A stretch of 64,000 bases of DNA from assembly GCF_036186745.1 (NCBI RefSeq), contig NZ_CP108086.1, forward strand, positions 1,178,001 through 1,242,000, in the 5' to 3' direction. Numbering within the stretch: the first letter of the stretch is position 1; every line of letters begins with the position of its first letter. Below, in pieces: positions 35,470 to 54,724 of this stretch. The notes below the pieces were generated by a model that saw nothing but the letters and a program-made list of their open reading frames with translations, was not told the origin of the DNA and did not search any database. The position numbers and the translations under genes were made by a program. Origin of the DNA: Microbispora hainanensis. Its GTDB lineage: Bacteria; Actinomycetota; Actinomycetes; Streptosporangiales; Streptosporangiaceae.

Positions 35470-37179
35470 TTGAAACGCACTCTCGCTCTGGGCGGGGTCG
35501 CGGCCGGCCTGCTGGCCTCCGCGGCGATAGCCGCCCCGGCTCACGCCGACTCCATCCCGTCCGTCAACCTCGCCAAGACCAACCTCGCCGCGAAGGAAGT
35601 CGCGGCGTTCTGGTTCGGTCAGGCGCGGGCCAACCTGATCAACGCCACGCCGTACGGCGTGGAGACCAAGATCTCGGCCAAGCACGTGTCGACCGGCGGA
35701 GCCTCCGCCGACACCAAGGCCGGCGTTGTCGGGTCGAGCGGCGACCAGAAGGCCGCCAGCGGCAGCCTCAAGAACGTGAACCTGCCGAAGACCACCGGCA
35801 AGGTGTTCTTCATCGGCGCCGACGGCAGGCCGCACTGGTGCTCGGCGACCGCCGTGCAGTCGCAGTACAAGAACCTGGTGGCGACCGCGGGTCACTGCGT
35901 GTACGACACCAAGTCCAACGCCACGACTCTGGACAAGTGGGTCTTCATCCCCGGCTACTACGAGGGCAAGACCCCCTGGGGCATCTACGTCGGTAAGACC
36001 GCTTACACGCACTACGACTACAGCGTGTACGAGGACGGCGACCGCGACTACGCGTTCGTCACGGTCTACAACGGCGTCCAGGTCACGGACGTGCGCTACG
36101 ACAAGCACGACGACCACCGCGGCAAGGGCCACAGCGGCCGCTACGACCACGACGGCAAGCACCGCGGCGGACGTGACCACGGCAAGAGCGATTGGCGTGT
36201 GGCGCCCGTCTCCGTCCGGCAGTTCCAGGCCCTGAACAGGGGCAAGGACCTCACCGGCAACGGCCCCTGGGCCAAGGGCACCGGCGTCCAGACCCACGAG
36301 ATCGGCGAGTTCGCCTACCACAGCCACGCGGACTCGTACGTCAGCCGTGACGGCAAGACCCTCTACTTCCGCAAGAAGGTCTGGGACCGCGACGACTACA
36401 AGGGTCCGAAGAGCGACGACAAGCAGCTCACGCCGAAGGCCGCGCCCAGCGGCGAGAACAACCGCTTGGCGCCTCCCACGCCTCCCAAGCCCCCCACGCC
36501 TCCGAAGCCCCCCACGCCCCCGGAGCCGCCCAAGCCGCCCAAGCCGCAGCCGACCGTCACGGTCACAGCGACCGCGACCGCCACGGTCACGGCGACAGCG
36601 ACCGTCACCGCGACCGCGACCGTCACCGCGACTCCCACCTACAAGCCGACGGCCAAGCCCACCTTCCGCCCGAAGTACAAGTACTACGCGCGGACGTTCT
36701 GGGCGCAGACCCGCGTCGACCACCGGCCGCACGGCACCCTGAAGATCACGCTGAAGGACGTCGGCAGCCTCGGCTCCAACGTCGGTGGTCAGGGCCTGGC
36801 CTACAACCAGAAGATCGGCACCTCGATCTTCATGTTCGGCTACCCGAGCGGGTCGCACCCGGACGGCAACTACGCCTTCACCGGCAAGACCCAGAAGTGG
36901 GCCTACGGCAAGACCTTCAAGGCGAGCTCCGCGGCCATCAAGGGCGAGGAACTCGTGGGGGTCAAGTCCTCCTTCACGGGCGAGGGCGCCATCGGCTCGT
37001 CCTGGCTCTACCGCTACAGCAACGCCAAGCGGCTCGGTTACCTGAACGGTGTGACCATCGGTGTCGCCGACACCGACGGCAACGGCCGCATCGACACCAG
37101 CATCTCGCCGTACTTCGACGGTGAGACGCTCGGCGTCTACAAGGCCGCCGCGGCCAACTGGTCCGGCAAGATCGTCTGA
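35470..37179 (+). CDS. P1: secreted trypsin-fold protein lacking the catalytic Ser, longest insert
   Basis: This 569-residue pre-protein has a Sec signal peptide ending AHA-D at about 27. The first half keeps Cys124 and Cys143 (a likely disulfide) and catalytic His142 (ATAGHC) and Asp193 (DRDYAFV). The Ser region reads GEGAIGSSW with Ile508 in place of the nucleophile, so no serine-protease activity is expected. Between Asp and Ser sits a 220-residue insert (204-423): His/Asp/Gly-rich, then NLTGNGPW, then Pro-Lys-Thr repeats, then about 30 residues of alternating Thr, Val and Ala. The TTG start is fixed by GGGAG and the signal peptide. A ligand-binding or decoy role is inference. Confidence 0.88.
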   Translation: MKRTLALGGVAAGLLASAAIAAPAHADSIPSVNLAKTNLAAKEVAAFWFGQARANLINATPYGVETKISAKHVSTGGASADTKAGVVGSSGDQKAASGSLKNVNLPKTTGKVFFIGADGRPHWCSATAVQSQYKNLVATAGHCVYDTKSNATTLDKWVFIPGYYEGKTPWGIYVGKTAYTHYDYSVYEDGDRDYAFVTVYNGVQVTDVRYDKHDDHRGKGHSGRYDHDGKHRGGRDHGKSDWRVAPVSVRQFQALNRGKDLTGNGPWAKGTGVQTHEIGEFAYHSHADSYVSRDGKTLYFRKKVWDRDDYKGPKSDDKQLTPKAAPSGENNRLAPPTPPKPPTPPKPPTPPEPPKPPKPQPTVTVTATATATVTATATVTATATVTATPTYKPTAKPTFRPKYKYYARTFWAQTRVDHRPHGTLKITLKDVGSLGSNVGGQGLAYNQKIGTSIFMFGYPSGSHPDGNYAFTGKTQKWAYGKTFKASSAAIKGEELVGVKSSFTGEGAIGSSWLYRYSNAKRLGYLNGVTIGVADTDGNGRIDTSISPYFDGETLGVYKAAAANWSGKIV

Positions 37180-37203
37180 GTCTCCGACTCCTGACGTCCA
37201 GGA

Positions 37204-37232
37204 GGGCCCGGCTGTTCGCAGCCGGGCCCTTT
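37204..37232 (+). terminator. P1 terminator
   Basis: GGGCCCGGC/GCCGGGCCC stem (37204-37229) with an 8-nt loop, then TTT. Confidence 0.9.
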
Positions 37233-38400: not shown

Positions 38401-38479
38401 TGTGATTTACGTCACATCGAGCCGTGACCGACCTGGCGCGGAACGTGACCGTAATCCTTCCACACAGCCCGCGATCAGC
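38401..38479 (+). promoter_or_regulatory. CRP-type site plus CGATCAGC box upstream of P2
   Basis: TGTGATTTACGTCACA at 38401-38416; the second box is CGATCAGC at 38472 (one mismatch to TGATCAGC), 71 bp start to start. Confidence 0.8.
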
Positions 38480-38575
38480 TCGTTTTCAGCTTCCGTTCAG
38501 GAAGCGACTGAAGGCACGAAGTTGGAGGCAATGCGCGAAGCGATCAATTCCACTTACGTCACTCCAATTGGTCCT

Positions 38576-38648
38576 ATAGCTTTCTCCTCGTTCCTCACTG
38601 ACGGATGGGGCGCAAGTGACGCCTCACGACAGACCAGGAGAAAGTTAT
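38576..38648 (+). promoter_or_regulatory. P2 leader: anti-RBS complement and conserved hairpin
   Basis: ATAGCTTTCTCCT (38576-38588) is complementary to AGGAGAAAGTTAT (38636-38648), which contains the ribosome binding site and the first two bases of the ATG: 12 Watson-Crick pairs and one G-U. In between lies the GGGGCG/CGCCTC hairpin (38607-38625). The first strand overlaps a possible -10 (CTATAGC), so whether it is transcribed is open. Confidence 0.65.
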
Positions 38649-40224
38649 GAAGCGCACTCTCGCTCTGGGCGGGGTCGCGGCCGGCCTGCTGGCCTCCGCG
38701 GCGATCGCCGCCCCGGCTCACGCCGACTCGGTTCCGGCCGTGAACCTGGCCAACACGAACTTCGCGGCTCAGCAGGTCGCGGCGTTCTGGTACGGCCAGG
38801 CCAAGGCCAACCTGATCAACGCCACCCCGTACACGGTGGAGACCACGGTCCCCACCAAGCACGTGTCGACCGGCGGGGCCTCCGCCGACACCAAGGCCGG
38901 CGTTGTCGGGTCGAGCGGCGACCAGAAGGCCGCCACCGGCAGCCTCAAGAACGTGAACCTGCCGAAGACCACCGGCAAGGTGTTCTTCATCGGCGCCGAC
39001 GGCAAGCCGCACTGGTGCTCGGCCACCTCGGTTCAGTCGCAGTACAAGAACCTGGTGGCGACCGCGGGTCACTGCGTCTACGACACCAAGTCCAACGCCG
39101 CCACCCTGGACAAGTGGGTCTTCATCCCCGGCTACTACGAGGGCAAGACCCCCTGGGGCATCTACGTCGGTAAGACCGCTTACACGCACTACGACTACAG
39201 CGTGTACGAGGACGGCGACCGCGACTACGCGTTCGTCACGGTCTACAACGGTGTGGTTCCCACCGAGGGTGGCACCAGCGGCGGCAAGTACGAGTCGCGC
39301 GTCTACCACAACAAGTGGGACGCCTACCGTGCGAAGCGGAAGCTGCAGGCCGACAAGACCACGGGCTACTCCAAGCTCGAGGTCGTCGAGGTCAACAAGC
39401 TCTCGCGGTTCGGCAAGGAGACGGCGGTCAGCGTCGCCGACTTCCAGGCCTGGAACAAGGGCAGGAACCTGACGGGCAACGGCCCCTGGACCCCGGGCAC
39501 CAGCGCGTCCGAGGCCAAGGAGATCTCCAAGAACGAGTACCGTTCCTGGAAGGACTCCTACGTCAGCAAGGACGGGAAGACCCTGTACTGGCGGACGAAG
39601 GTCCAGGCTCCGGCCGCCGCCGCGTCCGCGAGCCCGAGCCCCAGCGCCAGCGCGCAGGCCCAGGGCAACAAGTGGCAGGGCAACAACTGGGGGCACCGCG
39701 ACCAGGGCCACTTCGAGTACAAGTACTTCAGCCGGACCTTCACCGCGAAGGTCATCACGGGCTACAAGGTCGTCGGCCTGAAGCTCTCGATCGGTCTGAA
39801 GGACGTCGGCACCCTCGGGTCCAACGTCGGTGGTCAGGGTCTGGCCTACAACCAGAAGATCGGCACGGGCATCTTCGAGTTCGGTTACCCGAGCGGGTCG
39901 CACCCGGACGGCAACTACGCCTTCTCCGGCAAGACCCAGAAGTGGGCCTACGGCAAGACCTTCAAGGCCTCCGCGCCGTCCCTGAAGGCCGAGGAGCTGG
40001 TGGGCATCAAGTCCTCCTTCACCGGCGAGGGCTCCATCGGTTCCGCGTGGCTGTACCGCTACAGCAACGCCAAGCGGCTCGGCTACCTCAACGGTGTGAC
40101 CATCGCGGTCTCCGACACCGACGGCAACAACCGCATCGACACCAACGTCTCCCCGTACTTCGACGGTGAGACCCTGGGCGTCTACAAGGCCGCTGCCGCC
40201 AACTGGTCCGGCAAGATCGTCTGA
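38647..40224 (+). CDS. P2: secreted trypsin-fold protein lacking the catalytic Ser
   Basis: This 525-residue pre-protein has the same Sec signal and an N-terminal half nearly identical to P1, P3 and P4. His (ATAGHC) and Asp (DRDYAFV) are kept; residue 464 is Ile (GEGSIGSAW). The insert includes VADFQAWNKGRNLTGNGPW, a Lys/Tyr-rich SYVSKDGKTLYWR, an Ala/Ser/Pro stretch and Gln/Asn/Gly/His-rich sequence. ATG start with AGGAG. The 3' end and terminator match P3 and P4 almost base for base, a sign of recent duplication or gene conversion. Confidence 0.88.
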   Translation: MKRTLALGGVAAGLLASAAIAAPAHADSVPAVNLANTNFAAQQVAAFWYGQAKANLINATPYTVETTVPTKHVSTGGASADTKAGVVGSSGDQKAATGSLKNVNLPKTTGKVFFIGADGKPHWCSATSVQSQYKNLVATAGHCVYDTKSNAATLDKWVFIPGYYEGKTPWGIYVGKTAYTHYDYSVYEDGDRDYAFVTVYNGVVPTEGGTSGGKYESRVYHNKWDAYRAKRKLQADKTTGYSKLEVVEVNKLSRFGKETAVSVADFQAWNKGRNLTGNGPWTPGTSASEAKEISKNEYRSWKDSYVSKDGKTLYWRTKVQAPAAAASASPSPSASAQAQGNKWQGNNWGHRDQGHFEYKYFSRTFTAKVITGYKVVGLKLSIGLKDVGTLGSNVGGQGLAYNQKIGTGIFEFGYPSGSHPDGNYAFSGKTQKWAYGKTFKASAPSLKAEELVGIKSSFTGEGSIGSAWLYRYSNAKRLGYLNGVTIAVSDTDGNNRIDTNVSPYFDGETLGVYKAAAANWSGKIV

Positions 40225-40822: not shown

Positions 40823-42124
40823 ATGAAGCGCACTCTCGCTCTGGGCGGGATCGCGGCCGGCCTGCTGGCCTCCGCGGCGATCGCTGCCCCGGCTCACGCC
40901 GACTCGGTTCCGGCCGTGAACCTGGCCAACACCAACCTCGCGGCTCAGCAGGTCGCGGCGTTCTGGTACGGCCAGGCCAAGGCCAACCTCGTCAACGCCA
41001 CCCCGTACACGGTGGAGACCACGGTCCCCACCAAGCACGTGTCGACCGGCGGGGCCTCCGCCGACACCAAGGCCGGCGTTGTCGGGTCGAGCGGCGACCA
41101 GAAGGCCGCCACCGGCAGCCTCAAGAACGTGAACCTGCCGAAGACCACCGGCAAGGTGTTCTTCATCGGCGCGGACCACAAGCCGCACTGGTGCTCGGCC
41201 ACCTCGGTTCAGTCGCAGTACAAGAACCTGGTGGCGACCGCGGGTCACTGCGTCTACGACACCAAGTCCAACGCGACCACCCTGGACAAGTGGGTCTTCA
41301 TCCCCGGCTACTACGAGGGCAAGACCCCCTGGGGCATCTACGTCGGTAAGACCGCTTACACGCACTACGACTACAGCGTGTACGAGGACGGCGACCGCGA
41401 CTACGCGTTCGTCACGGTCTACAACGGCGTTCTGCCCACCGAGGGTGGCACCAGCGGCGGCAAGTACGAGTCGGAGACCTACAAGTTCAAGTGGCAGGCC
41501 GACCGGGCGCTGAAGAAGCTCCAGGCCGACAAGACCACGGCGCTGTCGAAGCTCGCGGTCGTGCCGGTCTACGAGGGCGGCAACAAGCCCGCTGGCAACT
41601 TCGGCTGGAGGAAGGGCAACCACCCGACGCCGTCCCCGTCGCAGACCCCGAAGATCATCGGCTACAAGGTCGTCGGCGTGAAGCTGTCGATCGGCCTCAA
41701 GGACGTCGGCTCGCTGGGCTCGAACGTGGGCGGTCAGGGTCTGGCCTACAACCAGAAGATCGGCACGGCCGTCTTCGAGTTCGGTTACCCGAGCGGGTCG
41801 CACCCGGACGGCAACTACGCCTTCTCGGGCAAGACCCAGAAGTGGGCCTACGGCAAGACCTTCAAGGCGGCTGCGCCGTCCCTGAAGGCCGAGGAGCTGG
41901 TGGGCATCAAGTCCTCCTTCACCGGCGAGGGCTCCATCGGTTCGTCCTGGCTCTACCGCTACAGCAACGCCAAGCGGCTCGGCTACCTCAACGGTGTGAC
42001 CATCGCGGTCTCCGACACCGACGGCAACGGCCGGATCGACACCAACGTCTCCCCGTACTTCGACGGTGAGACCCTGGGCGTCTACAAGGCCGCTGCTGCC
42101 AACTGGTCCGGCAAGATCGTCTGA
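40823..42124 (+). CDS. P3: secreted trypsin-fold protein lacking the catalytic Ser, short insert
   Basis: This 433-residue pre-protein is the shortest of the array. Signal peptide, His and Asp are as in P2, with Ile372 at the Ser position (GEGSIGSSW). The variable region lacks the NLTGNGPW module and is a short Lys/Gln segment (ADKTTALSKLAVVPVYEGG), a Gly/Asn/Arg turn and a Pro/Ser stretch. P2 and P3 agree closely on both sides of the insert, so the insert changes while the fold is held. Confidence 0.88.
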   Translation: MKRTLALGGIAAGLLASAAIAAPAHADSVPAVNLANTNLAAQQVAAFWYGQAKANLVNATPYTVETTVPTKHVSTGGASADTKAGVVGSSGDQKAATGSLKNVNLPKTTGKVFFIGADHKPHWCSATSVQSQYKNLVATAGHCVYDTKSNATTLDKWVFIPGYYEGKTPWGIYVGKTAYTHYDYSVYEDGDRDYAFVTVYNGVLPTEGGTSGGKYESETYKFKWQADRALKKLQADKTTALSKLAVVPVYEGGNKPAGNFGWRKGNHPTPSPSQTPKIIGYKVVGVKLSIGLKDVGSLGSNVGGQGLAYNQKIGTAVFEFGYPSGSHPDGNYAFSGKTQKWAYGKTFKAAAPSLKAEELVGIKSSFTGEGSIGSSWLYRYSNAKRLGYLNGVTIAVSDTDGNGRIDTNVSPYFDGETLGVYKAAAANWSGKIV

Positions 42125-42566: not shown

Positions 42567-42639
42567 ATAACTTTCTCCTCGTTCCTCACTGACGGATGGG
42601 GCGCAGGTGACGCCTCACGACAGACCAGGAGAAAGTTAT
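42567..42639 (+). promoter_or_regulatory. P4 leader: perfect 13-nt anti-RBS complement and hairpin
   Basis: ATAACTTTCTCCT (42567-42579) is the exact complement of AGGAGAAAGTTAT (42627-42639), which spans the ribosome binding site and AT of the start codon. The GGGGCG/CGCCTC hairpin (42598-42616) would form the inner part of one extended structure. Confidence 0.7.
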
Positions 42640-44119
42640 GAAGCGCACTCTCGCTCTGGGCGGGGTCGCGGCCGGCCTGCTGGCCTCCGCGGCGATCGCT
42701 GCCCCGGCTCACGCCGACTCGGTTCCGGCCGTGAACCTGGCCAACACCAACCTCGCCGCTCAGCAGGTCGCGGCGTTCTGGTACGGCCAGGCCAAGGCCA
42801 ACCTGATCAACGCCACCCCGTACACGGTGGAGACCACGGTCGCCACCAAGCACGTCACCACGGGTGGCGCGTCCGCCGACACCAAGGCCGGCGTTGTCGG
42901 GTCGAGCGGCGACCAGAAGGCCGCCACCGGCAGCCTCAAGAACGTGAACCTGCCGAAGACCACCGGCAAGGTGTTCTTCATCGGCGCGGACCACAAGCCG
43001 CACTGGTGCTCGGCCACCTCGGTTCAGTCGCAGTACAAGAACCTGGTGGCGACCGCGGGTCACTGCGTCTACGACACCAAGTCCAACGCGACCACCCTGG
43101 ACAAGTGGGTCTTCATCCCCGGCTACTACGAGGGCAAGACCCCCTGGGGCATCTACGTCGGTAAGACCGCTTACACGCACTACGACTACAGCGTGTACGA
43201 GGACGGCGACCGCGACTACGCGTTCGTCACGGTCTACAACGGCGTTCTGCCCACCGAGGGTGGCACCAGCGCCGGCAAGTACGAGTCGCAGACCTACCGC
43301 ACCAAGTGGCAGGCCGAAGCGGCGCTGAAGAAGCTCCAGGCCGACAAGACCACGGTTGCGTCGAAGCTGAAGGTCGAAGAGGTCAAGGAGCTCTCGCGGT
43401 TCGGCAAGGAGACGGCGATCAGCGTCGCCGACTTCCAGAACTACAACAAGGGCGCGAACCTGACGGGCAACGGCCCCTGGGCTCCCTTCACGTCCGTCAA
43501 GACCGATTCGATCAAGCCGAGCGAGTACAAGTTCTGGAACAAGGACTCGTACGTCAGCCAGGACGGGACGACTCTGTACTACCGGGTCCCCAAGCCGGGT
43601 AAGCGGAACGAGTTCGACTTCTTCAAGCGGACCTTCTCGGCGAAGATCCTCACCACCTACAAGGTCGTGGGCTTCAAGTTCGCGATCGGTCTGAAGGACG
43701 TCGGCACCCTCGGGTCCAACGTCGGTGGTCAGGGTCTGGCCTACAACCAGAAGATCGGCACGGGCATCTTCGAGTTCGGTTACCCGAGCGGGTCGCACCC
43801 GGACGGCAACTACGCCTTCTCCGGCAAGACCCAGAAGTGGGCCTACGGCAAGACCTTCAAGGCCTCCGCGCCGTCCCTGAAGGCCGAGGAGCTGGTGGGC
43901 ATCAAGTCCTCCTTCACCGGCGAGGGCTCCATCGGTTCCGCGTGGCTGTACCGCTACAGCAACGCCAAGCGGCTCGGCTACCTCAACGGTGTGACCATCG
44001 CGGTCTCCGACACCGACGGCAACAACCGCATCGACACCAACGTCTCCCCGTACTTCGACGGTGAGACCCTGGGCGTCTACAAGGCCGCTGCCGCCAACTG
44101 GTCCGGCAAGATCGTCTGA
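42638..44119 (+). CDS. P4: secreted trypsin-fold protein lacking the catalytic Ser
   Basis: This 493-residue pre-protein keeps His and Asp and has Ile432 at the Ser position (GEGSIGSAW). The insert has the module LSRFGKETAISVADFQNYNKGANLTGNGPW in variant form, then SYVSQDGTTLYYR, but no Pro/Ser stretch. From the SIGLKDVGTLGSN-equivalent segment onward, P4 is almost base-identical to P2, through the terminator. Confidence 0.88.
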   Translation: MKRTLALGGVAAGLLASAAIAAPAHADSVPAVNLANTNLAAQQVAAFWYGQAKANLINATPYTVETTVATKHVTTGGASADTKAGVVGSSGDQKAATGSLKNVNLPKTTGKVFFIGADHKPHWCSATSVQSQYKNLVATAGHCVYDTKSNATTLDKWVFIPGYYEGKTPWGIYVGKTAYTHYDYSVYEDGDRDYAFVTVYNGVLPTEGGTSAGKYESQTYRTKWQAEAALKKLQADKTTVASKLKVEEVKELSRFGKETAISVADFQNYNKGANLTGNGPWAPFTSVKTDSIKPSEYKFWNKDSYVSQDGTTLYYRVPKPGKRNEFDFFKRTFSAKILTTYKVVGFKFAIGLKDVGTLGSNVGGQGLAYNQKIGTGIFEFGYPSGSHPDGNYAFSGKTQKWAYGKTFKASAPSLKAEELVGIKSSFTGEGSIGSAWLYRYSNAKRLGYLNGVTIAVSDTDGNNRIDTNVSPYFDGETLGVYKAAAANWSGKIV

Positions 44120-45018: not shown

Positions 45019-45091
45019 AACTTTCTGACCGTTCCTTTACTGACGTATGGGGCGCAGGAGTCGCCTCACGACAGACCAGGGAGAGAAAGTT
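45019..45091 (+). promoter_or_regulatory. P5 leader: partial anti-start complement and hairpin
   Basis: AACTTTCT (45019-45026) pairs with AGAAAGTT (45084-45091), including two bases of the TTG start. Hairpin GGGGCG/CGCCTC at 45049-45067. Confidence 0.6.
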
Positions 45092-46406
45092 GAAGCGCAC
45101 CCTCGCACTCGGTGGTGTCGCGGCCGGCCTGCTGGCCTCCGCCGCCATCGCCGCCCCGGCTCACGCCGACTCCATCCCGAGCGTGAACCTGGCCAACACC
45201 AACCTCGCCGCTCAGCAGGTCGCCCAGTACTGGTACGCCCAGGCCAAGGCCAACCTCGTCAACGCCACGCCGTACACGGTGGAGACCACGGTCGCCGCCA
45301 AGCACGTGACGACCGGCGGGGCTTCCGCTGACACCAAGGCCGGTGTCGTCGGCTCCAGCGGCGACCAGAAGGCTTCCACCGGCACGTCGAAGAACGTGAA
45401 CCTGCCGAAGACCACCGGCAAGGTGTTCTTCACCGGCGCCGACGGCAAGCCGCACTGGTGCTCCGCGACCGCCCTGCAGTCGACCTACAAGAACGTTGTG
45501 GCGACCGCGGGTCACTGCGTCTACGACACCAAGTCGAACAAGACGACGCTGGACAACTGGGTCTTCGTCCCCGGCTACTACGAGGGCAAGACCCCCTGGG
45601 GCATCTACGTCGGTAAGACCGCTTACACGCACTACGACTACAGCGTGTACGAGGACGGCGACCGCGACTACGCGTTCGTCACGGTCTACAACGGCGTCAT
45701 CCCCACCGAGAACGGCACCAGCGGCGGCGGCGTCTCGAAGTTCTTCAAGAACAAGAAGGACGCCGAGGACTACAAGGCCAAGCTCGCGGCCGACAAGACC
45801 ACCGGTTGGTCGAAGCTCGCGGTCGTGCCGGTCTTCGGCAAGTCCGCCGGCAAGGACAACGACCACAGCTGGAAGAACGGCGACAACCGCGGTAACGACC
45901 GTGGCCGTGGCCACGACCAGGGCCCGGGCCGCAACATCATCGGCTACAAGGTCACCGGCGTGAAGCTGTCGATCGGCCTCAAGGACGTCGGCACCCTCGG
46001 TGCCAACGTCGGTGGTCAGGGCCTGGCCTACAACCAGAAGGTCGGCACGGCCGTCTTCGAGTTCGGTTACCCGAGCGGGTCGCACCCGGACGGCAACTAC
46101 GCCTTCACCGGCAAGACCCAGAAGTGGGCCTACGGCAAGACCTTCAAGGCGAGCGCTCCCTCGATGAAGGCCGAGGAGCTCGTCGGCATCAAGTCCTCCT
46201 TCACCGGTGAGGGCGCCATCGGTTCGTCCTGGCTGTACCGCTACAGCAGCGCGAAGCGGCTCGGCTACCTCAACGGTGTGACCATCGCGGTCTCCGACAC
46301 CGACGGCAACGGCCGGATCGACACCAGCGTTTCCCCGTACTTCGACGGTGAGACCCTGGGCGTCTACAAGGCCGCCGCCGCCAACTGGTCGGGCAAGATC
46401 GTCTGA
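45090..46406 (+). CDS. P5: secreted trypsin-fold protein lacking the catalytic Ser
   Basis: This 438-residue pre-protein starts with TTG. His and Asp are as in the others; Ile377 sits at the Ser position (GEGAIGSSW). The insert lacks the NLTGNGPW module and is a Lys-rich segment plus Asp/Asn/Gly/Arg/His-rich sequence (NDRGRGHDQGPG). Two Tyr/Ala changes (QYWYAQAK) mark the N-terminal region as more diverged than P2-P4. Confidence 0.88.
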   Translation: MKRTLALGGVAAGLLASAAIAAPAHADSIPSVNLANTNLAAQQVAQYWYAQAKANLVNATPYTVETTVAAKHVTTGGASADTKAGVVGSSGDQKASTGTSKNVNLPKTTGKVFFTGADGKPHWCSATALQSTYKNVVATAGHCVYDTKSNKTTLDNWVFVPGYYEGKTPWGIYVGKTAYTHYDYSVYEDGDRDYAFVTVYNGVIPTENGTSGGGVSKFFKNKKDAEDYKAKLAADKTTGWSKLAVVPVFGKSAGKDNDHSWKNGDNRGNDRGRGHDQGPGRNIIGYKVTGVKLSIGLKDVGTLGANVGGQGLAYNQKVGTAVFEFGYPSGSHPDGNYAFTGKTQKWAYGKTFKASAPSMKAEELVGIKSSFTGEGAIGSSWLYRYSSAKRLGYLNGVTIAVSDTDGNGRIDTSVSPYFDGETLGVYKAAAANWSGKIV

Positions 46407-46952: not shown

Positions 46953-48275
46953 TTGAAGCGCACCCTCACGTTCGGCGGCGTCGCGGCCGGCCTGCTGGCC
47001 ACCGCCCTCGTCGCCTCCCCCGCGCACGCCGACCACTTCAAGCCCAAGGCCAAGCCGCTGGCCGAGACCAACTTCGCCGCCAAGCAGGTCGCCGCCTTCT
47101 GGCTGGGCGAGAAGATGGCGAACCTGGTCAACGCCACGCCGTACGGCACGGAGACCAAGGTCGCCGCCAAGCACGTCTCGACGATGCCCAAGGGAACGGC
47201 CGACACGAAGCCCGGTGTCGTCTCGTCCAGCAGCGACAAGAAGGCCACGAGCACGTCGAAGAACGTCAACCTGCCCCGCACCACGGGCAAGGTGTTCTTC
47301 ATCGGCTCGGACAACAAGCCGCACTGGTGCACCGCGACCGCCCTGCAGTCGCTGCACAAGAACCTGGTGGCCACGGCCGGTCACTGTGTCTACGACACGG
47401 TGAAGGACAAGGACCTGATGGACAAGTGGGTCTTCGTCCCGGGTTACTACAACGGCAAGACGCCGTACGGCATCTACGTCGGCAAGATCGCGTACACCCA
47501 CTTCGACTTCACCACCTACGGTGACGGCGACTTCGACTACGCGTTCGTCGCGGTCTACAACGGTGTCGTCCCCACGGACGGCGGCACCAGCGGCGGCAAG
47601 TACGAGTCCCGGCTCTACCGGACCAAGTGGGACGCCTACAAGGCCAAGGACCAGCTGGCGAAGGACAAGACCACGGCTTACTCGAGCCTCAAGGTCGTGC
47701 CCGTCTACACGGACCAGAAGCCGGGCGTCAAGTCGGCGAGCCCCTCCCCGTCGCCCTCGCCGTCCGCCTCGGCTTCCCCCTCGTCCACGCAGAGCAAGAA
47801 GTACCTCGTGGGCTACAAGGTCGTCGGCCTGAAGCTGACGATCGGCCTCAAGGACGTCGGCAAGCTGGGCGACAACGTCGGCGGCCAGGGCCTGGCCTAC
47901 AACCAGAAGGTCGGCCAGCCGACCTTCGTGTTCGGCTACCCGAGCGGCTCTCACCCGGACGGCAACTACGCCTTCACCGGCAAGACCCTCAAGTACAGCT
48001 ACGGCAAGACCTTCCCCGCCACGGCTCCGGCCCTGAAGGGTGAGGCGCTGCAGGGCATCAAGTCGTCGTTCACCGGCGAGGGCGCCTCCGGTTCCGCCTG
48101 GCTGTACAAGTACAACAACGCGACGCGGTTCGGTTACCTGAACGGCGTCACGATCGGTGTCTCCGACACCGATGGCAACGACCGCTACGACACCAGCGTT
48201 TCGCCGTACTTCGACGGTGAGACCCTGGCCGTCTACAAGGCCGCTGCCGCCACCCCCTCCTCCAACATCGTCTGA
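46953..48275 (+). CDS. P6: secreted trypsin-like serine protease with complete triad
   Basis: This 440-residue pre-protein is the only array member with Ser at the nucleophile position: GEGASGSAW, Ser379 (codon 48087-48089). His is in ATAGHC and Asp in DFDYAFV. It is thus the one likely active protease, resembling bacterial S1 enzymes with a GxSGS motif. The signal peptide ends AHA-D. The insert is short: Lys-rich, then an alternating Ser/Pro and Ser/Ala stretch. Protein and DNA differ more from the others than they do from each other, and its upstream region lacks the CRP-type and TGATCAGC boxes. TTG start with GGAGAG. Confidence 0.9.
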   Translation: MKRTLTFGGVAAGLLATALVASPAHADHFKPKAKPLAETNFAAKQVAAFWLGEKMANLVNATPYGTETKVAAKHVSTMPKGTADTKPGVVSSSSDKKATSTSKNVNLPRTTGKVFFIGSDNKPHWCTATALQSLHKNLVATAGHCVYDTVKDKDLMDKWVFVPGYYNGKTPYGIYVGKIAYTHFDFTTYGDGDFDYAFVAVYNGVVPTDGGTSGGKYESRLYRTKWDAYKAKDQLAKDKTTAYSSLKVVPVYTDQKPGVKSASPSPSPSPSASASPSSTQSKKYLVGYKVVGLKLTIGLKDVGKLGDNVGGQGLAYNQKVGQPTFVFGYPSGSHPDGNYAFTGKTLKYSYGKTFPATAPALKGEALQGIKSSFTGEGASGSAWLYKYNNATRFGYLNGVTIGVSDTDGNDRYDTSVSPYFDGETLAVYKAAAATPSSNIV

Positions 48276-48513: not shown

Positions 48514-48594
48514 TGTGATTTACGTCACATTTTCCGCGTTTGTGATCAGCGACACAGATCGCGCACACCCCCGCGAAATCAGCATCTCATCAGC
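48514..48594 (+). promoter_or_regulatory. CRP-type site plus second boxes upstream of P7
   Basis: TGTGATTTACGTCACA at 48514-48529. A TCATCAGC (one mismatch) lies at 48587, 73 bp start to start as in the other copies; an extra perfect TGATCAGC lies at 48543. Confidence 0.8.
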
Positions 48595-48764: not shown

Positions 48765-50219
48765 TTGAAGCGCACCCTCACTCTCAGCGGCATCGCGGTC
48801 GGCCTGCTGGCCTCCGCCGTCGTCGCCACCCCCGCGCACGCGGACTCCGTTCCGCACGACACCCTGGCCAGCAGCAACTTCGCCGCCAAGCAGGTCGCCG
48901 CCTTCTGGTTCGGCGAGCGTATGGCCAACCTCCGCAACGCCAAGCCGTACAACGTGGAGACGCGGGTCTCCGCCAAGCACGTCTCGACCGGCGGGGCCTC
49001 CGCGGACAGCAAGCCCGGCGTCGTCGGCTCCAGCGGCGACAAGAAGGCGACCAGCAGCACGAAGAACGTGAACCTGCCGAAGACCACCGGCAAGGTGTTC
49101 TTCATCGGCGCGGACAAGAAGCCGCACTGGTGCACGGCGACCGCCGTGCAGTCGCGTTACAAGAACCTGGTGGCGACCGCCGGCCATTGCGTGTACGACA
49201 CCAAGAGCAACAAGGCGACCCTGGACAAGTGGGTCTTCGTGCCCGGTTACTACCAGGGCAAGACCCCGTGGGGCATCTACGTGGGCAAGACCGCGTACAC
49301 CCACTACGACTTCGACGTCTACGAGGACGGCGACCGCGACTACGCGTTCGTGACCGTCTACAACGGCGTCCTGCCCACCAGCGGTTCCAGCAAGAGCTAC
49401 GCCCGCACCTACGAGACCTCCCGCGAGGCCAAGCGGGCCAAGGCCAAGCTCGACCGCGACAACGCCTACTCCCACCTTCGACTGCGGCCCGTGGTCGACA
49501 CCCGCCATGTGGTCAAGGAGGGCACCCGCGACTCGCAGAAGGTCTACGTCAAGCGGGACGACTGGAAGAAGCTCAACCCCGAGGGCACCCCGGCCGACGG
49601 TCCCTTCAAGGAGGGCACCGGCGTCACGGACAAGGAATACCGCTTCAAGCCGCGTGGCTGGGAAGAGGGCAAGCAGTCCCGCGACGGCAAGGCGTTCTAC
49701 CTGAAGAAGGGCGACAAGTACGTCGTCCGCACCTACTGGATCAACTACGACGTCGACTACCGCCTGACCGGCCGGATCCTCTCCATCGGCCTTAAGGACG
49801 TCGGCACCCTCGGCTCCAACGTCGGCGGCCAGGGCCTGGCGTACAACCAGAAGATCGGCGCCGGCACGTTCGTGTTCGGCTACCCGAGCGGCTCGCACCC
49901 GGACGGCAACCACGCCTTCTCCGGCAACACGCTCAAGTGGTCGTACGGCAAGACCTTCAAGGCCAGCTCCCCCACCATCAACGCGCAGGAGCTCATCGGC
50001 ATCAAGTCGTCGTTCACCGGCGAGGGCGCGCTCGGCTCGGCGTGGCTGTACCGCTACAGCAGCAAGAAGCGGCTCGGCTACCTCAACGGCGTGACCATCG
50101 GCGTCGCCGACCGCGACGGCAACCGGCGCTACGACACCAGCGTCTCCCCGTACTTCGACGGTGAGACGTACGGCGTGTACAAGGTCGCCGCGAACAACTG
50201 GTCGGGCAAGATCGTCTGA
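48765..50219 (+). CDS. P7: secreted trypsin-fold protein lacking the catalytic Ser (Leu)
   Basis: This 484-residue pre-protein has Leu423 at the Ser position (GEGALGSAW), the only Leu in the set. His and Asp are kept. Its insert is a different module shared only with P8: VVKEGTRDSQKVYVKRDDWKK, PADGPFKEGTGV, then EEGKQSRDGKAFYLKKGDKY. It starts with TTG. P7 and P8 face each other across abcF and ispE. Confidence 0.88.
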   Translation: MKRTLTLSGIAVGLLASAVVATPAHADSVPHDTLASSNFAAKQVAAFWFGERMANLRNAKPYNVETRVSAKHVSTGGASADSKPGVVGSSGDKKATSSTKNVNLPKTTGKVFFIGADKKPHWCTATAVQSRYKNLVATAGHCVYDTKSNKATLDKWVFVPGYYQGKTPWGIYVGKTAYTHYDFDVYEDGDRDYAFVTVYNGVLPTSGSSKSYARTYETSREAKRAKAKLDRDNAYSHLRLRPVVDTRHVVKEGTRDSQKVYVKRDDWKKLNPEGTPADGPFKEGTGVTDKEYRFKPRGWEEGKQSRDGKAFYLKKGDKYVVRTYWINYDVDYRLTGRILSIGLKDVGTLGSNVGGQGLAYNQKIGAGTFVFGYPSGSHPDGNHAFSGNTLKWSYGKTFKASSPTINAQELIGIKSSFTGEGALGSAWLYRYSSKKRLGYLNGVTIGVADRDGNRRYDTSVSPYFDGETYGVYKVAANNWSGKIV

Positions 50220-50238: not shown

Positions 50239-50265
50239 AGGGGCCCGGCATCCCGCCGGGCCCCT
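50239..50265 (+). terminator. P7 terminator
   Basis: AGGGGCCCGGC/GCCGGGCCCCT, loop ATCCC, then TT. It is the exact inverse copy of the P8 terminator. Confidence 0.92.
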
Positions 50266-50357
50266 TTCCGTTCTCCGCCTCGCCGGTGGCGGGTTTCTCC
50301 GCCTCGCCGATGGGTTGATCACATCTCCGGTTGCCGAGATCGCGACCGGCCGGCGGC

Positions 50358-52166
50358 CTACTGCCCTTCGAGGCGCTCCGCCAACGCCATCCACTCGATC
50401 TCGGCCGCCTCCTTCTGCGCGGCGATCTCCCGCAGCTCGGCGTCGAGCCTGCCCAGGCGTTCGAAGTCGCTCGCCGCCTCGGCCATCTCGGCGTGCAGCT
50501 TCGCCTCACGCTCGCCGAACTTGTCGATCTGCCGTTCCAGCCGGTTGAGCTCCTTCTGCAGCTCCCGCAACTCCTTGGCGGACAGCCCGCCCGACGGCGC
50601 CGGCTGCTCGTCGCGGGCGGCCCGCTCGGGAGCGCCCGTGGCGGCGGCCGCCCGGGCCGACAACGCGGCGCCCGCAGCGCGGCGTTCCAGGTATTCGTCC
50701 ACGCCGCCGGGCAGCATCGACAGCCTGCCGTCCCCCAGGAGCGCGACGCAGCGGTCCGCCACCCGCTCCAGGAAGTAGCGGTCGTGGCTCACCACCACCA
50801 GCGTGCCGGGCCAGCCGTCGAGGAGGTCCTCCAATTCGGTGAGCGTCTCGATGTCGAGGTCGTTGGTCGGCTCGTCGAGCAGCAGCACGTTGGGCTCGTT
50901 CATGATGAGCCGGAGGAGCTGCAGCCGCCGCCGCTCGCCGCCCGACAGGTCGCCGACGACCTTCCACTGGGCCTCGCCCCGGAAACCGAGGCGTTCGAGC
51001 AGCTGGGAGGCCGACCACTCCTTCTTGCCCACCTGGACGTACTTGCGGATCTCCTCGACCGTCTCCAGCACCCGCCGCGTGGGGTCCAGCTCGGCGAGCT
51101 CCTGCGACAGGTGGGCGAGCCGCACGGTCTTGCCGCGCACGATGCGGCCGGAGTCGGCCTCGACCGTGCCGGACAGCAGGCGCAGCACCGACGACTTGCC
51201 CGAGCCGTTCACGCCGATCAGGCCGATCCTGTCGCCCGGGCCGAACTGGTACGTGCAGTGGTCGAGCACCAGGGGCCCCGCGCCGGGGCCGCCCGCGTGG
51301 AGCGTCACGTCCTCCAGGTCCACAACGGTCTTGCCGAGCCGCGCCGAGGCGAAGCTCAGCAGCTCGACTGTCTCCCGCGGCGGCGGCTCGTTCGCGATCA
51401 GCGCCTCGGCGGCGTTGATGCGGAACTTGGGCTTGGAAGTCCGGGCCGGCGGGCCGCGCCGCAGCCAGGCGATCTCCTTGCGCATGAGGTTCTGCCGGCG
51501 CTCCTCGGCGGCCTGCGCGATCCGCGCCCGCTCGGCCTTGGCCAGCACGTACGCCGCGTAGCCGCCCTCGTATCGCTCGACCGAGCCGTCGACGACCTCC
51601 CACGTGCGGGTGGAGACGGCGTCGAGGAACCACCGGTCGTGGGTGACGACGAGCAGCGCCGACTTGCGCTGGACGAGATGCCCGGCCAGCCAGGCGATGG
51701 CCTCGATGTCGAGGTGGTTCGTGGGCTCGTCGAGGATCAGCAGGTCGTGCTCCTCGACCAGCAGCCGCGCCAGTGCCGTACGGCGGCGCTCCCCGCCCGA
51801 CAGCGCGCCCGCGGGGGCCGCGAGGTCGATGTCGGCGAGCAGGTTGGCGAGGATCTCCCTGATCGCGGCGTCGCCGGCCCACTCGTGCTCGGCCCGGCCG
51901 GCCAGGACGATGTCCTTCACGGCGGCGTCCGGGTCGAACTGGTCGCGCTGGGCGAGCGCGCCGACGCGCAGCCCGCGCGTGTGGGTGACCCGCCCGCTGT
52001 CGGGCTTCAGCGTTCCGGCGATGATCGAGATGAGCGTGGTCTTGCCGCCGCCGTTGCGGCCGACGACGCCGATCCGGTCGCCTTCCTCCAGCCCGAGAGA
52101 GACGTCGGCGAGCAGGGGCTTGGGCCCGAAGGCGTGGGAGACGGACTCCAGATTGACCAGATTCAT
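50358..52166 (-). CDS. ABC-F family ATPase (Uup-like, with C-terminal coiled coil)
   Basis: This 602-residue protein has two ABC cassettes without membrane segments: Walker A GRNGGGKTT and GVNGSGKSS, signatures LSGGERRRTALA and LSGGERRRLQLL, Walker B DEPTNHLD and DEPTNDLD, joined by the ABC-F linker and ended by an antiparallel coiled coil (about 520-600) as in Uup. ABC-F proteins act on ribosomes; some give resistance to ribosome-binding antibiotics. The place beside ispE and rsmA is the conserved housekeeping one, so a translation role is more likely than resistance. The next upstream gene ispE ends 12 bp before it. Confidence 0.93.
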   Translation of the reverse strand: MNLVNLESVSHAFGPKPLLADVSLGLEEGDRIGVVGRNGGGKTTLISIIAGTLKPDSGRVTHTRGLRVGALAQRDQFDPDAAVKDIVLAGRAEHEWAGDAAIREILANLLADIDLAAPAGALSGGERRRTALARLLVEEHDLLILDEPTNHLDIEAIAWLAGHLVQRKSALLVVTHDRWFLDAVSTRTWEVVDGSVERYEGGYAAYVLAKAERARIAQAAEERRQNLMRKEIAWLRRGPPARTSKPKFRINAAEALIANEPPPRETVELLSFASARLGKTVVDLEDVTLHAGGPGAGPLVLDHCTYQFGPGDRIGLIGVNGSGKSSVLRLLSGTVEADSGRIVRGKTVRLAHLSQELAELDPTRRVLETVEEIRKYVQVGKKEWSASQLLERLGFRGEAQWKVVGDLSGGERRRLQLLRLIMNEPNVLLLDEPTNDLDIETLTELEDLLDGWPGTLVVVSHDRYFLERVADRCVALLGDGRLSMLPGGVDEYLERRAAGAALSARAAAATGAPERAARDEQPAPSGGLSAKELRELQKELNRLERQIDKFGEREAKLHAEMAEAASDFERLGRLDAELREIAAQKEAAEIEWMALAERLEGQ

Positions 52167-52178
52167 CGCCCGTAAAGC

Positions 52179-53105
52179 TTATCCGGCCACGGTGGCCCCG
52201 GGGACGGGCCCGTGGGCGGTGACGACGGACCTGCAGCCGTCCACGTCCTTGAGCAGGGCGGCCAGCTCGTGCGCGTGCTCGGCCGACTCGGCCAGGAAGG
52301 CGCAGGTGGGGCCGGATCCGGAGACGATCGCGCCGAGCGCGCCGTGCGTGCGGCCGGCGGCGAGCGTGTCCGCGAGCGAGGGACGCAGCGCAAGCGCGGC
52401 GGGCTGCAGGTCGTTGCACAACGCCTGCCCGAGCGCCCTCGCGTCGCCCTCGCGCAGCGCGGCGAGCAGGGCCTCGCTCACCGCGGGCGTGGGCGCGGCC
52501 ACTCCCGCCTCCTCGCGCAGCCGGTCGCACTCGCCGTACACCCGGGGCGTGGACAGGCCGCCGTCGGCGAGGGCGAAGACCCAGTGGAAGACCCCGGCTG
52601 TCTCCAGCGGGGCGAGCCGCTCGCCGCGTCCGGTGCCCACGGCGGTGTCGCCGAGCAGCGCGAACGGCACGTCGCTGCCGATGTCGGCGGCGATCTCCAT
52701 CAGGTCTTCGACGGGCAGGCCGAGGCCCCACAGGTCGTTGCAGGCGACCAGCGCCGCGGCGGCGTCGGCGCTTCCGCCGGCCATGCCGCCCGCCACGGGG
52801 ATCGACTTGCGGATCAGCAGATCGGCCCGGTAGGAACGGCCCGCGCGGTCGGCCAGCGCCCTGGCGGCCCGTACGGCGAGGTTGTCGTCGCTCACCGGGA
52901 CCTCTCCCGTGAGGTCGCCCTCGACCCTGACCCTGAGCGGGGCGGCGGAGGGATCCGCGTCGAGCGGCTCGGCGGCGGTGACCTCGTCGAACAGCGAGAC
53001 CGCGTGGAAGACGTTCACCAGGTCGTGATAGCCGTCCTCGCGCAGCGGCCCGACCGCGAGCTGGAGATTGACCTTCGCCGGCACGCGCACCGTGATCGCG
53101 CTCAT
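52179..53105 (-). CDS. ispE: 4-diphosphocytidyl-2-C-methyl-D-erythritol kinase
   Basis: IspE phosphorylates CDP-methylerythritol in the non-mevalonate isoprenoid pathway. The 308-residue GHMP kinase has VRVPAKVNLQLAVGPLREDGYHDL at the start, the ATP loop IPVAGGMAGGSADAAAAL and GAIVSGSGPTCAF near the end. The Met at 53105 begins at the conserved domain; a frame extension to 53141 is not favoured. In most actinomycetes it follows rsmA directly; here P8 and a gene scar intervene. Confidence 0.95.
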   Translation of the reverse strand: MSAITVRVPAKVNLQLAVGPLREDGYHDLVNVFHAVSLFDEVTAAEPLDADPSAAPLRVRVEGDLTGEVPVSDDNLAVRAARALADRAGRSYRADLLIRKSIPVAGGMAGGSADAAAALVACNDLWGLGLPVEDLMEIAADIGSDVPFALLGDTAVGTGRGERLAPLETAGVFHWVFALADGGLSTPRVYGECDRLREEAGVAAPTPAVSEALLAALREGDARALGQALCNDLQPAALALRPSLADTLAAGRTHGALGAIVSGSGPTCAFLAESAEHAHELAALLKDVDGCRSVVTAHGPVPGATVAG

Positions 53106-53218
53106 CGCCCGCCCTACCGCCTCACGTCGCCATGCCTGCACTGCCTGGACATGGGACCGAAGCTTAGCGTCACCCGCACCCCCCGAGATCCGCCGGCGGA
53201 TGCGGTCCGGACAGCGGA

Positions 53219-53247
53219 AAGGGGCCCGGCGGGATGCCGGGCCCCTT
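53219..53247 (-). terminator. P8 terminator
   Basis: AGGGGCCCGGC and its complement around GGGAT; the inverse copy of the P7 terminator at 50239-50265. It also lies upstream of ispE on the same strand, so ispE needs its own promoter or read-through. Confidence 0.92.
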
Positions 53248-53266
53248 CGCGTGCAGCGGTGACCGA

Positions 53267-54724
53267 TCAGACGATCTTGCCGGACCAGTTCTTCGCGGCG
53301 GTCTTGTAGACGGCCAGGGTCTCACCGTCGAAGTACGGCGAAACGCTGGTGTCGATGCGCTTGTTGCCGTCGGTGTCGGAGACCGCGATGGTCACACCGT
53401 TCAGGTAACCAAGCCGCTTGGCGCTGCTGTAGCGGTAGAGCCAGGACGAGCCGATGGCGCCCTCACCGGTGAAGGAGGACTTGATGCCGATCAGCTCCTC
53501 GGCCTTCATCGACGGCGCGGCCGCCTTGAAGGTCTTGCCGTACGACCACTTGAGGGTCTTGCCGGAGAAGGCGTGGTTGCCGTCCGGGTGCGAGCCGCTC
53601 GGGTAGCCGAACACGAACGTGCCGCTGCCGATCTTCTGGTTGTACGCCAGGCCCTGGCCGCCCACGTTGGAGCCCAGGGTGCCGACGTCCTTCAGACCGA
53701 TCGACAGAGCCCGGCCGGTCAGGCGGTAGTCGACGTCGTAGTTGATCCAGTAGGTGCGGACGACGTACTTGTCGCCCTTCTTCAGGTAGAACGCCTTGCC
53801 GTCACGGGACTGCTTGCCCTCTTCCCAGCCACGCGGCTTGAAGCGGTACTCCTTGTCCGTGACGCCGGTGCCCTCCTTGAAGGGACCGTCGGCCGGGGTG
53901 CCCTCGGGGTTGAGCTTCTTCCAGTCGTCCCGCTTGACGTAGACCTTCTGCGAGTCGCGGGTGCCCTCCTTGACCACATGGGCGGTGTCGACCACGGGCT
54001 GGATGGTCACGTGCGAGTAGGCCTTGTCGCGGTCGAGCTTGGCCTTGGCCCGCTGAGCCTCACGGAGGGTCTCGTAGGTCCGGTTGTAGCTCTTGCCCGA
54101 GGCGCTGGTGGGCAGGACGCCGTTGTAGACGGTCACGAACGCGTAGTCGCGGTCGCCGTCCTCGTAGACGTCGAAGTCGTAGTGGGTGTACGCGGTCTTG
54201 CCCACGTAGATGCCCCACGGCGTCTTGCCGTTGTAGTAACCCGGGACGAAGACCCACTTGTCCAGGGTCGCCTTGTTGCTCTTGGTGTCGTACACGCAAT
54301 GGCCGGCGGTCGCCACCAGGTTCTTGTACTGGCTCTGCACGGAGGTCGCCGAGCACCAGTGCGGCTTCTTGTCCGCGCCGATGAAGAACACCTTGCCGGT
54401 GGTCTTCGGCAGGTTCACGTTCTTCGACGTGCCGGAGGAGGCCTTCTTGTCACCGCTGGAGCCGACCACGCCGGCCTTGGTGTCGGCGGAGGCGCCGCCA
54501 GTGGACACGTGCTTGGTGGGGACCGTGGTCTCCACCGCGTACGGCGTCGCGTTGACCAGGTTGGCCTTGTTCTGGCCGTACCAGAACGCGGCGACCTGCT
54601 GGGCGGCGAAGTTCGTGCTGGCCAGGGTGTCGTGCGGAACGGAGTCCGCGTGGGCGGGGGTGGCGACGGCCGCAGAGGCCAGCAGGCCGACCGCGATGCC
54701 GCCGAGGGTGAGGGTGCGCTTCAA
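53267..54724 (-). CDS. P8: secreted trypsin-fold protein lacking the catalytic Ser, inverted copy
   Basis: This 485-residue pre-protein is the only leftward copy. His and Asp are kept; residue 424 is Ile (GEGAIGSSW). It is a mosaic: the N-terminal part (FWYGQNKANLVNATPY, ETTVPTKHVSTGGAS) is like P2-P4, while the insert and following 60 residues are almost identical to P7. TTG at 54724 with GGGAG is chosen; the open frame to 55024 is only the leader. It sits inside the otherwise conserved rsmA-ispE interval. Confidence 0.88.
   Translation of the reverse strand: MKRTLTLGGIAVGLLASAAVATPAHADSVPHDTLASTNFAAQQVAAFWYGQNKANLVNATPYAVETTVPTKHVSTGGASADTKAGVVGSSGDKKASSGTSKNVNLPKTTGKVFFIGADKKPHWCSATSVQSQYKNLVATAGHCVYDTKSNKATLDKWVFVPGYYNGKTPWGIYVGKTAYTHYDFDVYEDGDRDYAFVTVYNGVLPTSASGKSYNRTYETLREAQRAKAKLDRDKAYSHVTIQPVVDTAHVVKEGTRDSQKVYVKRDDWKKLNPEGTPADGPFKEGTGVTDKEYRFKPRGWEEGKQSRDGKAFYLKKGDKYVVRTYWINYDVDYRLTGRALSIGLKDVGTLGSNVGGQGLAYNQKIGSGTFVFGYPSGSHPDGNHAFSGKTLKWSYGKTFKAAAPSMKAEELIGIKSSFTGEGAIGSSWLYRYSSAKRLGYLNGVTIAVSDTDGNKRIDTSVSPYFDGETLAVYKTAAKNWSGKIV

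What the first reader, a model, noticed from the sequence alone, without database searches (positions are those of the whole stretch)
35470..54724. An array of eight secreted trypsin-fold paralogs in which seven lost the catalytic serine
Seen: P1-P5 and P8 have Ile, and P7 has Leu, exactly where P6 has Ser in the GxSGS motif (codons at 36991, 40036, 41936, 43931, 46218, 50031, 53455; P6 Ser at 48087). His (ATAGHC) and Asp (DYAFV) are kept in all. Known: the nucleophile is essential in S1 proteases, and expanded families of inactive protease homologs serve as decoys, inhibitors or adaptors in mites and insects. Inference: these are abundant secreted pseudoproteases that bind substrates, inhibitors or phage/host factors, possibly around the one active member P6.
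Basis: partly seen in the sequence, partly recalled or inferred. Interest (0 to 1): 0.88.

Follow-up and report, generated by a model that had tools for sequence, protein, structure and literature searches.

The report
Pseudoprotease array, one serine regained
A Microbispora genome carries eight neighbouring genes for predicted secreted trypsin-like proteins; seven have isoleucine or leucine where the cutting serine should be, as nearly all of their closest listed relatives do, and the eighth has most likely regained its serine, which would make it a rare dead enzyme lineage that re-armed.

Summary
The interpretation changes. The serine was not lost locally: of the 120 closest homologs listed, 116 have Ile or Leu and only the four of the P6 type have Ser. 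P6 sits inside the Ile/Leu clade. Both barrel halves place it with Leu genes, one-loss retention is rejected (p-AU 0.0029), and irreversible loss needs 17 losses against 4-6 changes. Serine was most likely regained.

Three features were missed. (1) A region inserted between the barrels varies fast (dN/dS about 0.8-1.6 in 7 of 11 pairs; barrels 0-0.55), while barrels are partly homogenised by conversion. (2) All seven Ile/Leu genes carry an exact TGTGA-N6-TCACA (CRP-type) palindrome 246-261 bp upstream, 7 of only 21 in the genome; P6 and its Leu relatives lack it. (3) Relatives elsewhere have Asp, Ala, Val or Met at the site.

Likely reading: a CRP-family regulon of secreted pseudoproteases whose barrels present variable binding inserts, with P6 a re-armed, decoupled member. 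Activity, binding and regulation are untested.

The parts
35470..37179 (+). P1, pseudoprotease paralog, 569 aa, Ile (ATC at 36991)
38647..40224 (+). P2, pseudoprotease paralog, 525 aa, Ile (ATC at 40036)
40823..42124 (+). P3, pseudoprotease paralog, 433 aa, Ile (ATC at 41936)
42638..44119 (+). P4, pseudoprotease paralog, 493 aa, Ile (ATC at 43931)
45090..46406 (+). P5, pseudoprotease paralog, 438 aa, Ile (ATC at 46218)
46953..48275 (+). P6, the one member with Ser (TCC at 48087), 440 aa; likely regained serine
48765..50219 (+). P7, pseudoprotease paralog, 484 aa, Leu (CTC at 50031)
53267..54721 (-). P8, pseudoprotease paralog, 484 aa, Ile (ATC at 53455)
43265..43687 (+). Inserted domain of P4 (residues 210-350), between the barrels; 10-residue block pLDDT 88-97 for residues 211-350; no Pfam match over cut-off, no PDB sequence match below E 0.86
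35210..35225 (.). Exact TGTGA-N6-TCACA palindrome upstream of P1
38401..38416 (.). Exact palindrome upstream of P2
40576..40591 (.). Exact palindrome upstream of P3
42390..42405 (.). Exact palindrome upstream of P4
44838..44853 (.). Exact palindrome upstream of P5
48514..48529 (.). Exact palindrome upstream of P7 (a one-mismatch match follows at 48541-48556)
54970..54985 (.). Exact palindrome upstream of P8 (minus-strand gene)
50358..52166 (-). ABC ATPase of ABC-F type between P7 and P8 (landmark; not part of the family)
52179..53141 (-). GHMP kinase, IspE-like (landmark; not part of the family; the IspE label is recalled)

Best explanation
The array encodes eight predicted secreted trypsin-fold proteins, seven of which lack the catalytic serine and are therefore likely non-cutting, and they probably act as conserved two-barrel scaffolds that would each present a different, fast-varying inserted region for binding an outside partner. 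Shown: Ile or Leu at the nucleophile in seven; the same state in 116 of the 120 homologs listed; strongly conserved barrels; a fast-changing region between them (distance from the Asp strand to FGYP 44-315 residues in 73 non-Ser rows, 41-48 in Q1 and TGGSSGGPW Ser types); and an exact CRP-type palindrome at a near-fixed distance upstream of all seven. Inferred: a CRP-family regulator switches them on together, probably under carbon limitation, and the inserts bind extracellular partners (protease inhibitors, substrates or competitor proteins are the candidates). P6 lies inside the serine-less clade. Its lineage likely left the palindrome-bearing set first, because its Leu relatives lack the site too, and then regained serine, probably through Leu codons, in an ancestor of the Microbispora species that carry it; this would restore a full His-Asp-Ser triad. 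Whether P6 cuts anything is untested.
For: Triad survey of the 120 listed homologs: H/D/I 62, H/D/L 31, H/N/I 10, H/N/L 10, H/D/S 4, S/D/L 2, Q/D/I 1. Tree of 97 rows, nucleophile column masked: 7 Ser rows of the P6 type in a 14-row clade with 7 Leu rows (100/100), inside a 38-row clade (100/100). One loss with Ser kept in P6: dlnL 75.6, p-AU 0.0029. Irreversible loss: 17 losses on the best tree, 14-21 over 300 of 1000 bootstrap trees, against 4 changes; 2dlnL 48. With Ser genes of other genera added (122 rows): P6 type in a 15-row clade with 8 Leu rows (100/100), 17 losses against 6 changes. Each barrel half alone recovers the 14-row clade (93 of 97 rows each; SH-aLRT 99). Gene order around the P6 slot is shared with species that have Leu. 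Insert dN/dS 0.77-1.60 in 7 of 11 pairs, 0.14-0.57 in the other 4; barrels 0-0.55, one undefined. Identical runs of 437 bp (P2/P4) and 400 bp (P3/P4). Palindromes: 7 exact in the window, each upstream of a non-Ser gene; 78 of 91 subfamily genes exact and 4 more with one mismatch; 21 in the whole genome.
Against: No activity, binding, expression or regulator data. The barrels are poorly modelled (mean pLDDT 55 and 59), so Ile at the nucleophile was placed by alignment, not by a trusted model. The core Ser clade as the earliest branch is not rejected (p-AU 0.445), so the direction of change deeper in the tree is open. Ser-to-Leu loss is shown to happen (core gene in G000 and G005), which weakens counting arguments. 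A short conversion tract is not excluded: the core Ser gene of G007 differs from P6 at only two of the nine codons around the site. P6 has Ile at the Ser214-equivalent (numbering recalled) and Tyr at an otherwise conserved Trp, so it may still be inactive. Ser genes are not always triad-complete: two keep Ser with Asn for Asp (L125, L127) and one has lost both others (L120). Site and serine state are not testable together on the tree: 6 supported independent pairs, median sign-test p 1. The dN/dS values are crude pairwise estimates, and 4 of 11 pairs do not show the pattern.
Confidence: 0.6

Rival explanations
1. P6 kept the ancestral serine and its relatives lost it again and again; loss of Ser is simply frequent.
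For: One clear independent loss is seen: the core gene has Ser (TCG or TCC) in 13 rows and Leu (CTG) in the G000/G005 pair. Relatives outside the genus have Asp, Ala, Val or Met.
Against: Needs 17 losses on the best tree (14-21 over 300 bootstrap trees) against 4 changes; 2dlnL 48; 17 against 6 with other genera's Ser genes added; forbidding gain costs 24 steps against 14; one-loss topology rejected; both halves nest P6 among Leu rows.
Confidence: 0.15
2. The seven are decoys or sponges that mimic proteases, so that inhibitors or attackers bind them instead of the triad-complete paralogs (P6 and the Q1/Q3 types), or they assist those paralogs.
For: Triad-complete paralogs exist in the same genome. 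MamO, an inactive trypsin-fold protein, activates its active partner and binds metal (PMC4794232: abstract and one section read).
Against: The fast-changing part is the insert, not the barrels that an inhibitor would be expected to read; no inhibitor genes were sought.
Confidence: 0.25
3. The Ile/Leu proteins are still enzymes with an unusual nucleophile, since His and Asp are kept in most.
For: His and Asp are both kept in 93 of 116 non-Ser homologs; a Ser two places on (GS) is invariant in the window alignment.
Against: Asp became Asn in 20 of 116 and His changed in 3 of 116; six Herbidospora genes have all three changed; the Ser two places on is also present in P6 beside its nucleophile, so it need not be a replacement.
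Confidence: 0.07
4. The copies are decaying duplicates kept by chance and homogenised by gene conversion.
For: Identical runs of 437 and 400 bp suggest recent conversion.
Against: No stops inside; whole-gene dN/dS 0.15-0.62 in the nine between-genome pairs that involve a window gene, 0.04-0.75 over all 25 pairs; a palindrome kept (at most one mismatch) upstream of 82 of 91 genes.
Confidence: 0.03

Closest known systems
AL20 alkaline serine protease (3cp7) and Anisep (3wy8), S1-type bacterial proteases
   Same: Best sequence and fold matches for the family and for an own-genome relative
   Different: Anisep has Ser in the aligned motif and both chains are short (216-219 residues); here seven of eight lack Ser and carry a large insert between the barrels
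MamO (magnetotactic bacteria)
   Same: Bacterial trypsin-fold pseudoprotease; degenerate triads arose repeatedly in that group (PMC4794232, abstract and one section)
   Different: No array with a fast-varying insert and no serine regain described in the parts read
Scabies mite inactivated protease paralogs (SMIPPs)
   Different: Eukaryotic; nothing here shows common descent beyond the general fold
Chp/Pat-1 proteins of Clavibacter
   Same: Secreted S1-like family in another actinobacterium (PMC11290698, passages)
   Different: The passages report that disrupting the triad abolishes function there; not compared by sequence here

Membership tests
S1 trypsin-fold peptidases (AL20/Anisep-like) | Sequence and fold match to a solved member | tested here: met
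S1 trypsin-fold peptidases (AL20/Anisep-like) | Complete His-Asp-Ser triad, P6 | tested here: met
   H144, D195, S379 by alignment
S1 trypsin-fold peptidases (AL20/Anisep-like) | Complete His-Asp-Ser triad, P1-P5, P7, P8 | tested here: not met
   Ile or Leu at the Ser column
Pfam Trypsin PF00089 | Score over the curated cut-off | tested here: not met
   P6 and P7 15 bits against 20.6; six others no match at E up to 1; none of the 10 genome-wide matches lies in the window
Pseudoproteases | Nucleophile replaced by a non-nucleophile | tested here: met
   Seven of eight
Pseudoproteases | No peptidase activity | not testable with these tools
   Needs purified protein
CRP-family regulon | TGTGA-N6-TCACA palindrome upstream | tested here: met
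   7 of 8 genes, exact; P6 lacks it
CRP-family regulon | Binding by a CRP-family protein | not testable with these tools
   The genome has 7 cNMP-binding domain matches over cut-off; none was linked to these sites
MamO-type metal-binding pseudoprotease | Surface di-histidine metal site | not tested
   No reliable barrel model

The most novel reading that the evidence does not exclude
A pseudoenzyme came back to life: a lineage of serine-less trypsin-fold proteins, running as a CRP-controlled array of variable binding proteins, lost its palindrome in one gene slot, regained the catalytic serine through Leu codons, and is a working protease again in four sampled Microbispora genomes while related slots in five sister genomes still hold Leu.
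Probability: 0.45. Interest if true: 0.85.

Novelty: new variant of a known kind. Interest (0 to 1): 0.68.

Why it matters
Loss of a catalytic residue is usually treated as one-way. This slot gives close relatives with Leu and with Ser in sister species of one soil genus, so whether a dead enzyme can re-arm becomes directly testable with natural proteins. It also shows that many proteins named 'trypsin-like serine peptidase' in public databases lack the serine, and it points to a CRP-type regulon whose members seem built to vary one inserted region on a fixed scaffold.

Tried and rejected
Local loss of serine in this array: rejected, because the state is subfamily-wide. Gene conversion of a Ser codon from the core gene into P6: over 108 bases around the codon P6 differs from the Leu relatives at 18-20, from four own paralogs at 20-29 and from nine core Ser genes at 23-33, so a long tract is unlikely; a tract of a few codons is not excluded (the G007 core gene differs at only two of nine codons there). 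Leu as the sole gateway between Ser and Ile: only weakly supported (forbidding S-I costs 15 steps, S-L 17, free 14). Ser214-equivalent Ile as a mark of the Ile/Leu clade: 103 of 105 non-Ser rows and 7 of 7 P6-type rows have Ile, core, Q1, TGGSSGGPW and L034 rows Ser, but Q3 Ser genes (9 of 9) and one Sphaerimonospora Ser gene (L185) also have Ile and other genera's Ser genes Ala or Thr, so it is weak support. Palindrome absence as a correlate of serine: counts look strong (non-Ser with site 125, without 13; Ser with 16, without 48), but independent pairs are too few (median p 1), and core Ser genes do carry it.

Trees: a quick tree of 141 rows put the long-branch Q3 group in an unlikely place, so I rebuilt with 97 rows. 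The 141 rows were 107 of the 123 genus rows and 34 of the 120 listed proteins. Dropped from 141 to 97: 17 long-branch, outgroup or far-type rows and 27 near-identical rows, named in the script. The AU tests did not hold the Ser genes of other genera; a 122-row tree with some of them kept P6's place. In one search, two L034 rows, L109, rows with under 290 bases upstream and duplicates were dropped. Support labels were read after rerooting.

Insert: no Pfam match over cut-off, no PDB sequence match below E 0.86; the whole-family profile touched a ParB-domain nuclease at E 0.081 there, taken as chance; a search for stand-alone relatives found 4 hits, three of them partial Microbispora records. 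The structural list tests the insert poorly. Literature: no regained pseudoenzyme nucleophile found in three searches, listings only; no paper on this family in the listings apart from PMC4709908 (passages).
Full report
Observation. The window lies at 1178001-1242000 of an 8.80 Mb genome whose closest listed homologs are mostly from Microbispora. His and Asp are kept in 8 of 8. Pfam does not recognise the family over cut-off (eight proteins) and NCBIfam gave nothing for P2 and P6. The column is the nucleophile: it is Ser in all Q1, Q3, TGGSSGGPW and core Ser rows, and a family profile aligns its Ile with the Ser of Anisep. The closest solved relatives are AL20 and Anisep.

The serine was not lost here. 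A search gave 1157 homologs, of which 120 were listed; 73 have Ile, 43 Leu and 4 Ser, the four being P6 itself and three Microbispora proteins of its type. Asp is Asn in 20 and His is changed in 3 of the 116 non-Ser ones, and in none of these 4 Ser ones. In 15 genomes of the genus (regions), 131 genes were read: Ser 50, Ile 48, Leu 33. Ile is always ATC; Leu is CTC 27 or CTG 6; Ser is AGC 19, TCC 18 or TCG 13. Beyond the genus, 80 of 277 matching loci were kept. Those from Microtetraspora, Acrocarpospora, Herbidospora, Sphaerimonospora and Planotetraspora are mostly Ile or Leu, with one Val, one Met and a few Ser; six Nonomuraea genes have Asp (3) or Ala (3). Ser of codon type TCN in this motif occurs in 34 of 341 genomes of the family and 7 of 68 genera (AGY was not searched). 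Some of those Ser genes have lost other triad residues (L120, L125, L127).

P6 most likely regained its serine. With the nucleophile masked, a careful tree of 97 rows puts 7 Ser rows (P6 and its type) with 7 Leu rows at 100/100, inside a 38-row clade at 100/100 whose other rows are all Ile or Leu. Holding the 74 non-Ser rows together, as one loss would require, costs 75.6 log units (p-AU 0.0029). If serine could only be lost, 17 losses are needed on the best tree (14-21 over 300 of 1000 bootstrap trees), against 4 changes; 2dlnL is 48 under either rooting tried, with Ser assumed at the root. A 122-row tree with Ser genes from other genera and Nonomuraea as outgroup keeps P6 with 8 Leu rows (15 rows, 100/100) and gives 17 losses against 6 changes. 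Trees from each barrel half alone recover the same 14-row clade with SH-aLRT 99, which speaks against a conversion artefact on the scale of a barrel. DNA around the codon is nearest to the Leu relatives, though the margin over some paralogs is small (18-20 differences in 108 bases; own paralogs 20-29, core Ser genes 23-33). Gene order agrees: in G002 the order is P5, P6, P7, P8 types as in the window, and in G003 and G009 a Leu gene of the P6 type sits next to a P7 relative. What remains open is the deeper root: the core Ser clade as the first branch is not rejected (p-AU 0.445). One independent loss is clear: the core gene at 805.7-806.9 kb is Leu (CTG) in this genome and in G005 and Ser in 13 other rows.

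Anatomy. Between the Asp strand and the second barrel lies an insert. The distance from the Asp strand to FGYP is 44-315 residues (median 189) in 73 non-Ser rows, 127-182 in 4 P6 rows, 77-94 in 13 core Ser rows, 66 in 7 Q3 rows, 48 in 14 Q1 rows and 41-42 in 3 TGGSSGGPW rows (rows without the anchor words were skipped). In the P4 model this domain has high confidence (10-residue block means 88-97 for residues 211-350) while the barrels do not. Among 11 pairs, insert dN/dS is 0.77-1.60 in 7 and 0.14-0.57 in 4 (P7/P8, P1/L079, P6/L078, P7/L093); barrels are 0-0.55, one undefined for lack of differences (simple pairwise method). P2 and P4 share an identical run of 437 bp over the second barrel, P3 and P4 one of 400 bp over the first; P6 shares at most 52 bp with any paralog. 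So barrels are partly homogenised while inserts diverge, and P6 seems to stand outside that exchange. No significant relative of the insert outside the genus was found.

Regulation. Seven exact TGTGA-N6-TCACA palindromes occur in the window, each 246-261 bp upstream of one of the seven non-Ser genes; with one mismatch allowed there are 8 matches against 0.64 expected (alignment). The whole genome holds 21 exact sites, 7 here and one (805426) before the core gene. Across the genus, 78 of 91 subfamily genes with at least 300 bases upstream have an exact site and 4 more one mismatch. The 9 without are four P6 Ser genes, four of their Leu relatives and one divergent gene; the fifth Leu relative had only 198 bases to look at. 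None of 30 Ser genes of the other types has one within one mismatch, though their starts were partly guessed. Beyond the genus 86 of 109 subfamily genes read (some of them the same genes) have a site with at most one mismatch. Hence the site was probably lost in the P6 slot before the serine changed. The consensus is that given for E. coli CRP in PMC5327559 (one passage). The genome has 7 cNMP-binding domain matches over cut-off.

Expression hint. In Microbispora ATCC-PTA-5024, ETK32012.1 and ETK32013.1, unknown proteins modelled as alkaline serine proteases, were over-represented at the stage when glucose was dropping (PMC4709908, passages). Two family members from that strain are in my list (P0048, P0066). 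That the accessions are the same proteins is a guess, not a result; it would fit CRP-type control and AL20 as the model template.

Mechanism and limits. The most economical account is a secreted, non-cutting two-barrel scaffold with a variable binding insert, made together under CRP-family control, plus one decoupled member that re-armed. Secretion rests on the signal-like N-terminus alone. Binding, regulation and P6 activity are inferred. MamO is the nearest bacterial precedent I read for a trypsin-fold pseudoprotease with a non-catalytic job. I found no report of a regained nucleophile in a pseudoenzyme in three searches, which cover open-licence papers only.

Noticed in passing
L033 2242-6609 (genome 804-808.6 kb): Second cluster of three relatives: Ser (AGC), Leu (CTG), Ser (TCG); the Leu gene has a TGTGA-N6-TCACA site upstream and its relatives in most other Microbispora genomes have Ser.
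   Followed up: yes
L034 (genome 4.484 Mb): A pair of more distant relatives with Ser on the minus strand.
   Followed up: partly
L194, L201-L204, L207: Nonomuraea relatives have Asp or Ala at the nucleophile; four of the six (three Ala, one Asp) carry the exact palindrome about 290 bp upstream.
   Followed up: partly
L120: A relative that keeps Ser but has Gln for His and Ser for Asp, the reverse kind of triad loss.
   Followed up: no
L176, L178-L180, L182, L183: Herbidospora members with all three triad positions changed (Gln, Asn, Ile), yet with an exact palindrome about 128 bp upstream of the assumed start.
   Followed up: no
L185: A Sphaerimonospora Ser gene (TCG) with Ile at the Ser214-equivalent and a one-mismatch palindrome; it could be a further kept or regained serine.
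   Followed up: partly
window, between palindrome and start of P1-P5, P7, P8: A second shared element near ATCAGC; degenerate in P6 (alignment).
   Followed up: no
genome-wide: Thirteen other exact TGTGA-N6-TCACA sites whose genes were not examined.
   Followed up: no
window 31938-33584 (-) and 28903-30999 (+): CYTH-CHAD protein close to a polyphosphate kinase gene left of the array.
   Followed up: no
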